Shown here: in pieces, positions 31,150 through 35,378 of the stretch
Layout: each line of letters begins with the position of its first letter
Position numbering within the stretch: the stretch's first letter is position 1
Assembly: GCA_905182175.1 (NCBI GenBank)
Contig: CAJJAT010000003.1
Location: 1-64,000, forward strand
Reading direction: 5' to 3'
DNA length: 64,000 nucleotides
Origin: Flavobacteriales bacterium UBA1494
GTDB taxonomy: Bacteria; Bacteroidota; Bacteroidia; Flavobacteriales_E; Vicingaceae
Translations under genes and position numbers: made by a program
Notes under the pieces: model-generated
Databases searched by the model: none
What the model was told of the DNA's origin: nothing
What the model saw: only the letters and a program-made list of their open reading frames with translations

Positions 31150-31950
31150 TTAAGCAGTCAAACTTGAATTTACTCGCTCTTTCTGGTTCTTTTTGTGCAA
31201 CGTAATGGTCGCTGCAACCGCCGAAATAATGGCGACAAATGAGGACAAGGCTATTCCAATGAACGGGATGGCTAGAATGAGTGTAAATAAAAGACCATTA
31301 CCAATCACAATTTCTCTGTTTTTCTTCATGTAATTGACACTTTCTGAAACGCTAAATTTCTTGCGTTCTAAGTTGTAATCAATAAAAGAGAAGCCGTAGT
31401 AATAGGCAGAAACGATGATAAGAATAGGGGAGGCTCCAAAGCCTAAAAGAGGAACGAAACTCAATCCAAAAAGTAAAACGATAAACAACAATTCGAAGGC
31501 GAAATTTCGAATGCTTATTCTAATTCCTCTTGCAATATCGATTAACAATTGTTTGAAAGTAAAAGGGTAGTCGCTTCCCTCTAAAATCCGTTCGGTGCGT
31601 TCAGAAACAATTGCTAAGACTGGTGACATTAAAATTAGAACAACATGACCACCTAGAAACGCAAGGACTAGAAAAATCAATATTTTTAAGACAATCCAAA
31701 GAAAGATGCGCACCATTGAAGCAAGAAAATCTGAGCCCCAAAACTCCCAACTTTCGAAATTTATCAAAGCCTCCATCCAAATCAATACATCATCAGAGAG
31801 TTCGCCTAAAAAATGAAAACCAGTGGTGAAAAACAAAATGTTCAACACAACTGGCCATAAGAAGTAGCGTTTCATGTTGTTTTTAAAAACGAACTCAATG
31901 GCGCTGCCGTAAGAGGAAAGAGCGATGATGAGGTTTGAGAATAGGTTCAT
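31150..31950 (-). CDS. EI24/CysZ-like membrane protein
   Basis: The 266 residues have about four strong membrane segments and the motifs WPVVLNILFF, LGGHVVLILMSPVLA and SFVPLLGFGASP, followed by YYYGFSFIDYNLERKKFS, all typical of the EI24 domain family that includes sulphate transporter CysZ. Whether this one carries sulphate is not known; sulphate genes are absent nearby. Its start overlaps the restriction gene stop by four bases (ATGA). Confidence 0.7.
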   Translation of the reverse strand: MNLFSNLIIALSSYGSAIEFVFKNNMKRYFLWPVVLNILFFTTGFHFLGELSDDVLIWMEALINFESWEFWGSDFLASMVRIFLWIVLKILIFLVLAFLGGHVVLILMSPVLAIVSERTERILEGSDYPFTFKQLLIDIARGIRISIRNFAFELLFIVLLFGLSFVPLLGFGASPILIIVSAYYYGFSFIDYNLERKKFSVSESVNYMKKNREIVIGNGLLFTLILAIPFIGIALSSFVAIISAVAATITLHKKNQKERVNSSLTA

Positions 31951-32690
31951 GGATTTGTTTTCAAATACTCTATCAAAGTTAATGGCTTTTTAGCATCATC
32001 CCTCAGATTACAACACCAAAACTCCCGCATGCCGTATTTCCATTTTTGTAAATGTTGAGGTTTTTCGTGGATTTGTTTTACCAAAGATGGTTTGTCAATC
32101 CAACCCATTAAAAAAGTATCTGTTTTGTACCGATATGCAGCCAATTGCTTGTAAACCTTTTCCAAGTTTATTTTTCGGTCTTCGAGTTTTTCGACAAGCT
32201 CAGCAGAGTTCGTACCCGAGAAGCTAGAGAGATCAATGGCTTGCTTTCTTAACCAGTCGTCTTTTCGCATTCGTAATTGTTTGAAAACGAGTTGTACATG
32301 AAGATCTGCATCCAGTTGTTCAATCGTTTTTTCTTGTCTTCGAATCAGTTTAATATCCCTTCGCCTTAACATTTCCTGCAAGTCTTGGTCAACATCGGGA
32401 ATGAGGGAGGTTTTAAGTTCAATGTCTACTTTTTTGAAACTTGTTTCGAAAACAAAATCAATGTCCATTCCCGAGGAGTGGTCTTTTATGTTAGACTGTT
32501 TAAATTCAATTTCGTGAAACTTTGCCCATTTTTTAAATGCCAATTCACCCACATATCCTCTCAGCTTACTATCCAAAGCCACATTGGGGTGTCTGTTTCT
32601 CAGGTTATCAATAAAGTTTTGTTGCAATGCTTTTTCTAGAGCAGGTAGAATTTCTTCTTTTGTTAGCGGTATGTGAACGATTGAGCTCAC
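31947..32690 (-). CDS. Predicted restriction endonuclease (PD-(D/E)XK fold) of a compact R-M pair
   Basis: A 247-residue protein whose start overlaps the methylase stop (ATGA). Residues 70-95 show a nuclease-like core: an upstream GELAFKKW helix with Glu49, Asp76/Asp78 in GMDIDFVFE, and IELKTS with Glu91-x-Lys93. This is the E...D...ExK layout of PD-(D/E)XK enzymes. The remainder is helical and charged. It is far shorter than type III Res subunits and has no helicase motifs, so a type II enzyme is the best interpretation. The cleavage site is unknown. Confidence 0.65.
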   Translation of the reverse strand: MSSIVHIPLTKEEILPALEKALQQNFIDNLRNRHPNVALDSKLRGYVGELAFKKWAKFHEIEFKQSNIKDHSSGMDIDFVFETSFKKVDIELKTSLIPDVDQDLQEMLRRRDIKLIRRQEKTIEQLDADLHVQLVFKQLRMRKDDWLRKQAIDLSSFSGTNSAELVEKLEDRKINLEKVYKQLAAYRYKTDTFLMGWIDKPSLVKQIHEKPQHLQKWKYGMREFWCCNLRDDAKKPLTLIEYLKTNP

Positions 32691-33964
32691 TTTTTAATCT
32701 GAACTTTAAGGTATTGTAGTTGATTATCCTCCAACCCTTCTACTTTTTTTCCTCTTCTGTTTTCGAAGCCCTCAATAGCTGCTTTGTTTCTAGCATAGGT
32801 TACATCTTCGCAAATCCTGTTTTCATTGTTGGTGATCAAGGTGCAACTTCTTTTTCCACCGTCCTTTTTATTTTGCAACATGGTTGCATGCAGCGTAGTA
32901 CCGCTGCCAGCAAAAAAGTCTAAAATGTTGGTGTTTTTTTGCGGAATTAAATTGATTACAAATTGCAGTAGATCAGTTGGTTTTGGATAGCTGAAAATGT
33001 CTTGTTTCAAGATGTCTTTCAGCTCATTGCTCCCTTTTGCATTGTTAAAATCAATCAATGCTCGGTATGGAAGTTGACGAACTCTTTTTTGGTCCTTGTT
33101 GTCAACAAACTGATATTGTTTGATGTATACTTTCCACCCTTTTGGCGTTTCTTTAAAAACGATGTAATCGTTGGTTAAACCCCATTCAAATTTATCTTTT
33201 CCCCAGCGCCATGTATTTGGTTTTCCAAAAAGTCCACCAGAAAGCATCTTGGTTCCATTGGGTGCAGTAATTTCATAATCTAAGGTCTTACTATAACTGC
33301 CTTTGTAATCTAGATCACGGAGATAGTATTTCCCCCTGCGTGTAATAAATTTGTCTTCAAATTTGTATTTAATGTCGTTTTCAACATCAACTGTTTCCTG
33401 ACTAAAAACCAACGTATTAATGTTGCTAGCGTAACACAACATATAGTCAAATTCTACCGCTACCTGCTTGCTATCGTGACCACTGCCTGCTTTATTTTTT
33501 CGAATAAAATTAGCGACAAAATTCTGTTCACCAAAAATACCATCGCAAATCAATTTCAATCGAGCTTGTTCTGCATCATCTATTGCTAAAAAGATTGCCC
33601 CATTTTTAGAAAGTAAGGTTTGGGCAATTACAAGTCGCTTGTACATAAAAGAAGACCAAGTTGAATGCCTAATTTCATCTTCGGTATTAAAGTAAGCATC
33701 GGTGTATTTAAAATCTTTGTTACCGGTGTTGTACGGTGGGTCAATGTAAATTAAATCAAAATTTTCCCCATTTTTTTGAAGCAGGTGAAGTCCAGCTAAA
33801 TTGTCCCCTTCAATTAATTGATGCAATGGGCCTTCATTTCCTACTTTTCGAGTTTTTACCTCTTGTAACGAAAGCTTGTTTTTAAAAATAGATTGCTCAA
33901 TTTCTTCTACCTTATTTTCCCAATAAAGTCCGTTATGATATATGAAGTTGGTTTTGTTTTTCAA
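32687..33964 (-). CDS. Beta-class DNA methyltransferase (N6-adenine or N4-cytosine)
   Basis: The catalytic motif DPPYNTG (75-78) is N-terminal and the AdoMet motif DFFAGSGTT is C-terminal (about 350), the permuted order of beta-class enzymes such as type III Mod and several type II methylases. The middle 200 residues form the target-recognition region. The downstream gene overlaps it by four bases and should be the cognate endonuclease. The pair lies between housekeeping genes, which suggests insertion by transfer, but base composition does not differ visibly. Confidence 0.85.
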   Translation of the reverse strand: MKNKTNFIYHNGLYWENKVEEIEQSIFKNKLSLQEVKTRKVGNEGPLHQLIEGDNLAGLHLLQKNGENFDLIYIDPPYNTGNKDFKYTDAYFNTEDEIRHSTWSSFMYKRLVIAQTLLSKNGAIFLAIDDAEQARLKLICDGIFGEQNFVANFIRKNKAGSGHDSKQVAVEFDYMLCYASNINTLVFSQETVDVENDIKYKFEDKFITRRGKYYLRDLDYKGSYSKTLDYEITAPNGTKMLSGGLFGKPNTWRWGKDKFEWGLTNDYIVFKETPKGWKVYIKQYQFVDNKDQKRVRQLPYRALIDFNNAKGSNELKDILKQDIFSYPKPTDLLQFVINLIPQKNTNILDFFAGSGTTLHATMLQNKKDGGKRSCTLITNNENRICEDVTYARNKAAIEGFENRRGKKVEGLEDNQLQYLKVQIKK

Positions 33965-34214: not shown

Positions 34215-35378
34215 CTACAAACTTCTCCTGTCTAATTCTTTGCGGATTAAATTCAACTCCCTTCCGGTTTGTCCTGCGACAGAAGTATTTTCATCTGCTC
34301 TTCGAATCAAATACGGCATTACCTCCTTTACAGGGCCATAGGGTACATATTTAGCTACATTAAAGTTAACTTTAGAAAGGTTAAAACTGATGTGGTCGCT
34401 CATGCCTAGTAATTGAGAAAAATAGATCCTACTGTCGTCCTCTAGGACTTGATGATCTTTCATGATTTCTGTTAATAGCAAAGAACTTTTTTCATTGTGT
34501 GTTCCTGCACAAATAGAAATTCGTCCGAGGTTTTCAACGCAAAATTGAATAGCTCTGTCGTAGTCAACATCTGTTGCAGACTTTGATGGTTGGATAGGTG
34601 AGAGGTAGCCCATTTTGGTTGCCCTATTTCTTTCCTTTTCCATATAAGCACCTCTAACAATCTTTAAACCAATGTAAAAGTTTCCCTCCTCCGCTTTTTG
34701 GTAAAGATTCTTAATGTAAAAGAATCTATCGTGCCGATACATTTGAGCTGTGTTATATACGATAGCCCTTTTAAGGTTATATCGTGTCATCAGCAAATGC
34801 GCTATTTCATCAATCGCATTTTGAATCCAACTTTCCTCGGCGTCAATCATTAAAGGAATGTTTGCATTGAAGGCATTCTGAGCAATTATATCAACCCTAT
34901 TTCGTCCTTTTAAAAACTCGATGTTTTCTTGTTCAGACAAAACTGTTCCTGCGCTTATTTTTTCCAACAGGTCAAACTCAATTAACCCTGTCAATTTAAT
35001 GACGCAAAAAGGCACGTTTCCATCTAGTTTTGCTCTTTCAATAGAAGATACAGCTTTACCCAAACAATGGTCAAAATCCGCTTCGTTTTGCTTTCCTTCA
35101 ACGGAATAATCTAAAATGGTTTTGACATTATAATTAGCTAGACCTTGAATGGTGTTTTCGCAGTCTAAAATATCTTCGCCTCCACAAAAGTGGTCAAACA
35201 CCGTCCATTTAATAAGACCCTTTACCGGCAAACCAAGGTTTAAAGCTAGCATGGTTAACTTTGTTCCAATATTGTTTAGCCAAGATATTGCTAAAACTTT
35301 AAAAACAAAATGAGCTTTTTTTAATTCTCTGTCGCTTCTGTTAGCAAAAGCAATCTTTGTATTTTCAAATGACAACAT
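34215..35378 (-). CDS. Proline dehydrogenase
   Basis: An FAD enzyme that oxidises proline to pyrroline-5-carboxylate. The barrel motifs are visible: ILDYSVEG, VIKLTGL, IPLMIDAEESW, YNTAQMYR, GLKIVRGAYMEKER, ICAGTHNE, and the C-terminal signature YGPVKEVMPYLIRRADENTS with the substrate-binding Arg pair. The 387 residues correspond to a monofunctional enzyme, so a separate P5C dehydrogenase must exist elsewhere. It overlaps the fabD stop by one base (TAATG). Confidence 0.93.
   Translation of the reverse strand: MLSFENTKIAFANRSDRELKKAHFVFKVLAISWLNNIGTKLTMLALNLGLPVKGLIKWTVFDHFCGGEDILDCENTIQGLANYNVKTILDYSVEGKQNEADFDHCLGKAVSSIERAKLDGNVPFCVIKLTGLIEFDLLEKISAGTVLSEQENIEFLKGRNRVDIIAQNAFNANIPLMIDAEESWIQNAIDEIAHLLMTRYNLKRAIVYNTAQMYRHDRFFYIKNLYQKAEEGNFYIGLKIVRGAYMEKERNRATKMGYLSPIQPSKSATDVDYDRAIQFCVENLGRISICAGTHNEKSSLLLTEIMKDHQVLEDDSRIYFSQLLGMSDHISFNLSKVNFNVAKYVPYGPVKEVMPYLIRRADENTSVAGQTGRELNLIRKELDRRSL

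What the first reader, a model, noticed from the sequence alone, without database searches (positions are those of the whole stretch)
31947..33964. Compact R-M pair: beta-class methylase with a 247-residue PD-(D/E)XK partner
The methylase has the DPPY-first, FxGxG-last order usual for type III Mod, yet the overlapping partner has no helicase motifs and is only 247 residues, with Glu49, Asp76/78 and ELK. This combination indicates a type II system with an unusual endonuclease that I cannot match to a named family.
Basis: partly seen in the sequence, partly recalled or inferred. Interest (0 to 1): 0.6.

Follow-up and report, generated by a model that had tools for sequence, protein, structure and literature searches.

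The report
Type III-derived methylase with standalone nuclease
Two overlapping genes in an uncultured (probably Flavobacteriales) genome encode a DNA methylase descended from type III restriction systems, minus its motor-docking end, and a small putative DNA-cutting enzyme from no catalogued family; the pair has stayed at one chromosomal spot across at least six genera and probably works as a simple restriction-modification system.

Summary
M (32687-33964, minus strand, 425 aa) is a beta-class DNA methylase. R (31947-32690, minus, 247 aa) overlaps it by 4 nt and has E49, D76/D78 and E91-L-K93 but no helicase motifs. R matches no Pfam, NCBIfam, PADLOC or PDB sequence family, but its model (pLDDT 85) has the PD-(D/E)XK arrangement, and most of its best structural matches are nucleases of that superfamily. 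New here: (1) M's nearest relatives are type III Mods followed by Res helicases. M ends exactly where they continue into a 110-155 aa C-terminal domain, which in EcoP15I docks Res. So this looks like a Mod that lost Res and its docking domain and gained a small nuclease. (2) M and R co-occur almost perfectly, including in one distant genome where they are unlinked. (3) The pair sits at one site (ProDH-M-R-EI24) in six genera, under purifying selection, with an empty site in one relative and a decayed pair in another, so it is largely vertically inherited. Best reading: a type II-like R-M system derived from type III. Recognition site, cleavage and protection of freshly replicated DNA are unknown. 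REBASE could not be searched. New variant of a known kind.

The parts
32687..33964 (-). M: beta-class DNA amino-methyltransferase, 425 aa, TTG start; type III Mod core without the C-terminal domain
   Evidence: Pfam N6_N4_Mtase 4.6e-33; PADLOC MTase_III 8e-84; PDB Mod 6k0w, Mbo45V, EcoP15I Mod; alignment and tree with type III Mods
33731..33742 (-). motif IV DPPY (M residues 75-78)
   Evidence: translation; invariant in alignment A2
32900..32914 (-). motif I FAGSG (M residues 351-355)
   Evidence: translation; invariant in alignment A2
31947..32690 (-). R: putative PD-(D/E)XK restriction endonuclease, 247 aa, GTG start
   Evidence: AlphaFold model pLDDT 85; structural matches mostly PD-(D/E)XK nucleases; no family match
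32412..32546 (-). R predicted catalytic core: E49 in the first core helix, D76/D78 at the start of strand 77-82, E91-L-K93 in strand 87-97
   Evidence: alignment A3 and model secondary structure
32687..32690 (-). 4-nt overlap GTGA: M stop / R start
   Evidence: same 4-nt overlap in 7 of 8 intact pairs measured, 8 nt in the eighth
31947..31950 (-). 4-nt overlap ATGA: R stop / EI24 (CysZ-like) start
   Evidence: also in G035
34215..35378 (-). flank: proline dehydrogenase, upstream boundary of the conserved insertion site
   Evidence: Pfam Pro_dh; next to M in all complete pairs of the family
31150..31950 (-). flank: EI24/CysZ-like membrane protein, downstream boundary of the site
   Evidence: Pfam EI24; downstream of R in 8 of 9 other family pairs, twice with an extra gene between

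Best explanation
A two-gene restriction-modification system built from a type III modification subunit that has lost the C-terminal domain used to dock the Res motor, and a separate small PD-(D/E)XK endonuclease. Inferred mechanism: M, probably a dimer as Mod is, recognises a short sequence and methylates a base in it (N6-adenine is inferred from its Mod relatives). R, made just after M by translational coupling, cuts the same sequence when it is unmethylated, without ATP or translocation, so incoming phage or plasmid DNA is cut and the chromosome is spared. Shown here: the gene pair, its co-occurrence, its conservation, the likely fold of R and the descent of M. Inferred: methylation, cleavage, a shared target and defence.
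For: M. R fold and active-site layout. M clusters with type III Mods that sit next to Res-type helicases but lacks 110-155 C-terminal residues present in all intact Mods compared; in EcoP15I that domain (aa 539-644) makes extensive contacts with Res (PMC4490356). A search with the Res beside the related Mod of G193 found only a ~20-bit generic match in the window genome. Co-occurrence: R in 10 of 46 family genomes, all with M; of 394 other genomes in the phylum sample only G068 has a true R, and it alone has an M above 240 bits. Purifying selection. Both genes decayed together in G032.
Against: No activity data. No motif avoidance specific to genomes with the pair. If M kept type III-like one-strand methylation, an R without the two-site rule should cut one daughter after each replication, so either specificity changed or the mechanism is more complex than plain type II. 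E49 is Gly in G030. One related M (G031) is present without R.
Confidence: 0.65

Rival explanations
1. M and R work as one complex: M supplies all DNA recognition and R is a nuclease subunit that docks on M in place of Res. Cutting would need M, and might still need two sites.
For: M retains the Mod core and a conserved middle region; R has a conserved N-terminal loop (26-33) and a helical arm that could be an interaction surface; M and R divergences are tightly correlated (r=0.93), though this also follows from shared descent.
Against: The Res-docking domain of Mod is gone rather than replaced; in G068 the two genes are unlinked, which fits independent enzymes better; R's size is that of self-sufficient type II enzymes (general knowledge).
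Confidence: 0.2
2. The pair was domesticated: M has a housekeeping methylation role and R is a weak or repair-type nuclease, explaining long vertical retention at one locus.
For: Inheritance at one site across six genera; an M without R in G031.
Against: R is under purifying selection with conserved predicted active-site residues; genus g13 lacks the pair and in G032 both genes are broken, so it is dispensable; inheritance across genera is already documented for the PabI restriction system (PMC4615327).
Confidence: 0.12
3. An ordinary type III system whose Res lies elsewhere in the genome; R is an unrelated neighbour.
For: M scores best against type III Mod models.
Against: No Mod C-terminal domain, no comparable Res found with one Res query, and R co-occurs with M even where the two are unlinked.
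Confidence: 0.03

Closest known systems
Type III restriction-modification, Mod subunit (EcoP15I Mod; Bacteroidota relatives with a Res helicase next door)
   Same: Beta-class motif order, DPPY, FAGSG and TNNEN region; M clusters with Bacteroidota Mods
   Different: Lacks the C-terminal Res-docking domain and the Res helicase-nuclease; the partner is a 229-247 aa stand-alone putative nuclease
Type II restriction-modification systems with a beta-class methylase and a separate PD-(D/E)XK endonuclease
   Same: Two genes, M then R, overlapping; R of typical type II size with the PD-(D/E)XK arrangement; no motor
   Different: M is derived from Mod; R matches no family in the libraries searched; site symmetry and cleavage position unknown
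PabI restriction-modification family (PMC4615327)
   Same: An R-M kind with documented inheritance at orthologous loci across genera
   Different: R.PabI is a DNA glycosylase, not a PD-(D/E)XK enzyme; a precedent for the inheritance only
Mbo45V methyltransferase (PDB 7dsu)
   Same: Strong local similarity to M, including the FAGSG and TNNEN region
   Different: 567 residues, with a longer C-terminus; its partner was not examined

Membership tests
Beta-class DNA amino-methyltransferase | Motif IV (DPPY) before the target recognition region and motif I (FxGxG) after it | tested here: met
   Sequence and alignment A2; Pfam PF01555 4.6e-33
Type III restriction-modification system | Mod with the C-terminal Res-docking domain | tested here: not met
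   110-155 residues present in all intact Mods compared are absent from M; role of the domain from EcoP15I
Type III restriction-modification system | Adjacent Res subunit with SF2 helicase and nuclease | tested here: not met
   Neighbour R is 247 aa without helicase motifs; other neighbours are ProDH and EI24
Type III restriction-modification system | A Res anywhere in the genome | tested here: inconclusive
   One Res query gave only a ~20-bit generic match in G000; other Res subfamilies were not queried
Type II restriction-modification system | Separate methylase and endonuclease genes, no motor subunit | tested here: met
   Gene arrangement; that R is an endonuclease is a prediction
Type II restriction-modification system | Endonuclease cuts at or near the methylase's site, ATP-independent | not testable with these tools
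   Needs purified protein
PD-(D/E)XK nuclease superfamily | Helix-strand-strand core with E, D and (D/E)xK in order | tested here: met
   Model: E49 in helix 35-58, D78 in strand 77-82, E91/K93 in strand 87-97; residues conserved
PD-(D/E)XK nuclease superfamily | Structural similarity to solved members | tested here: met
   VIA-align best rows are nearly all nucleases of this superfamily: D212 Z 8.2, rmsd 3.4, 134 aligned; I-Ssp6803I Z 7.0, rmsd 3.3, 125 aligned; SPARDA nuclease Z 6.7, rmsd 3.9, 130 aligned; NhoI/Eco15I; EcoRV. Z is middling and no Foldseek match passes 1e-3 in PDB
Named restriction endonuclease families in Pfam, NCBIfam, PADLOC | Profile match | tested here: not met
   Ten R sequences scanned; no meaningful match shared by members
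REBASE-characterised homologue pair | Close characterised relative | not testable with these tools
   REBASE not available

The most novel reading that the evidence does not exclude
A distinct R-M architecture: a type III Mod core stripped of its Res-docking domain that still methylates one strand of an asymmetric site, paired with an unrelated small nuclease that solves the replication problem without ATP or the head-to-head two-site rule, and kept as a vertically inherited chromosomal locus for family-level time.
Probability: 0.25. Interest if true: 0.7.

Novelty: new variant of a known kind. Interest (0 to 1): 0.5.

Why it matters
It looks like a captured transition from a motor-driven type III system to a simple two-enzyme system, the lost domain being the one that contacts the motor. 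It raises a testable question: how does the host survive replication if the methylase kept one-strand methylation while the two-site safety rule went with Res? It also adds an uncatalogued putative endonuclease family and a clear case of an R-M locus inherited across genera.

Tried and rejected
Relatives of R in viral contigs, phages and plasmids: none found. Recognition-motif prediction by avoidance of 4-6-mers and degenerate motifs in about 0.96 Mb from genomes with the pair versus 0.34 Mb without: CCAG, GATC and others are avoided in both sets, nothing specific. The G381 hit to R was rejected: it is a methylated-DNA cysteine methyltransferase by its sequence. The G608 hit is a lone 228-aa protein with a GE...D...ExK pattern and no methylase beside it, at best a remote superfamily relative. 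The apparent M frameshift in G040 was rejected: it is a run of N in the scaffold. The model of M was too poor to use (pLDDT 60). Foldseek on PDB gave no significant match; this is not taken as evidence of a new fold. Literature searches for a Mod core with a small nuclease gave nothing direct.

Full report
Observation. M (32687-33964, 425 aa) has DPPY at residues 75-78 and FAGSG at 351-355. R (31947-32690, 247 aa) has E49, D76, D78 and E91-L-K93 and no helicase motif. M and R share a GTGA overlap, and R shares an ATGA overlap with the next gene, a CysZ/EI24-like protein. Seven of eight intact pairs measured keep the 4-nt M/R overlap and the eighth has 8 nt.

What M is. Pfam places M in N6_N4_Mtase. 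The best PADLOC models are type III methyltransferases (8e-84) and the best PDB chains are Mod proteins and Mbo45V. In a sample of 395 phylum genomes and another of 395 class genomes, the nearest relatives outside the subfamily score 304-388 bits, against about 800-840 for complete family members and 565-590 for G068 and G031. All five loci of those nearest relatives are type III: a Mod of 587-625 residues with a Res-type DExH helicase downstream (the Res ORF of G646 is still open near its contig end). The Res of the G193 locus matches Pfam ResIII.

M is a truncated Mod. In alignment, M ends at a conserved GL..N.L.YY motif where the Mods continue for another 110-155 residues or so. Only G416, whose Mod is split into two ORFs, seems to lack it. 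In EcoP15I the C-terminal domain (aa 539-644) of one Mod makes extensive contacts with Res (PMC4490356). A tree on the shared part only puts the seven M proteins used into one group (support 85/96) beside Mods that keep the domain, so one loss suffices. A search with the G193 Res found only ~20-bit generic matches in genomes with the pair; other Res subfamilies were not tried.

What R is. None of ten R sequences gives a meaningful match in Pfam, NCBIfam, PADLOC or PHROGs, and their profile finds nothing in PDB. AlphaFold gave a good model (pLDDT 85, pTM 0.84). E49 lies in the first core helix (35-58), D78 in strand 77-82 and E91/K93 in strand 87-97, the PD-(D/E)XK layout. VIA-align ranks D212, I-Ssp6803I, SPARDA nuclease chains, Eco15I/NhoI, EcoRV, RecU and BglI near the top (Z 8.2 to 4.4). 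The Z values are middling and Foldseek on PDB was not significant, but the consistency of the list plus the conserved residues makes the assignment likely. D76, D78, E91 and K93 are invariant down to 37% identity; E49 is Gly in G030. Other conserved stretches, F26-x-D-N-L-R-x-R33 and W217-x-Y-G-x-R-x-F-W-x-C227, are candidates for DNA contact (inference).

Co-occurrence. Ten of 46 family genomes have R, and every one has M. Of 394 other genomes in the phylum sample only G068 has a true R, and G068 is also the only one there with a close M. In G068 the genes are unlinked: R follows MutS2 on one contig and M lies between a Sir2-like and an MscS-like gene on another, at least about 25 kb apart by contig ends. 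As one independent case, chance agreement is about 1 in 394. G031 has M beside a serine recombinase and no R; G036 has M cut by a contig end.

Inheritance. Every complete pair in the family lies directly downstream of proline dehydrogenase, and in all but G004 it precedes EI24, in six genera. G039 has an empty site, with about 165 bp between ProDH and EI24. M and R distances track FabD distances (Mantel r 0.91, p 0.0065 and r 0.89, p 0.002). ProDH is noisier because G035 appears to carry a replaced copy. R and M are under purifying selection (dN/dS about 0.09 and 0.05; synonymous sites are near saturation). G032 has a stop in M and a frameshift and stop in R. The simplest account is one insertion in an ancestor within the family, vertical descent and some losses; exchange through homologous flanks is not excluded. 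A published precedent exists for PabI (PMC4615327).

Mechanism. The commitment is to a type II-like pair: M protects, R cuts the same unprotected site. A difficulty remains. Known type III enzymes methylate one strand of asymmetric sites and avoid suicide after replication by requiring two opposed sites (PMC3874151). R has no motor to enforce that. Either M's specificity became symmetric, or R needs two sites or M by another route. Avoidance statistics could not settle the site.

Verdict. New variant of a known kind; activity and target are untested.

Noticed in passing
L039:8656-12489 (genome G068): Near the unlinked R homologue lies a D12/Dam-like methylase directly followed by a DpnI homologue (Pfam DpnI and DpnI_C), then a RhuM-like gene and another methylase. 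A Dam-like methylase beside a DpnI-like nuclease is odd, since DpnI cuts methylated GATC.
   Followed up: partly
L013:808-1968 (genome G035): Proline dehydrogenase is only 66% identical to the window's although FabD is 93% and M 83%; it looks like a gene replacement right beside the R-M pair.
   Followed up: partly
window and L150-L189: CCAG/CTGG is strongly under-represented (observed/expected about 0.58) in family genomes with the pair and also in those without it (0.68); GATC and GTAC likewise.
   Followed up: partly
L198:12483-14549 and L200:12046-14052: Two type III Mod-Res loci are followed by a large SMC/DndD-like ATPase gene; L200 also has a DUF262-like gene before Mod (by eye).
   Followed up: no
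L193:6563-7249 (genome G608): Lone 228-aa protein with a GE...D...ExK pattern, weakly similar to R's first 94 residues, with no methylase nearby and no Pfam match.
   Followed up: partly
L098:5608-8820 (genome G031): A close M relative without R sits next to a serine recombinase, suggesting a mobile orphan methylase.
   Followed up: partly
window 32166-32228: The window's R has an extra insert of about 18 residues absent from most relatives and modelled with low confidence.
   Followed up: no
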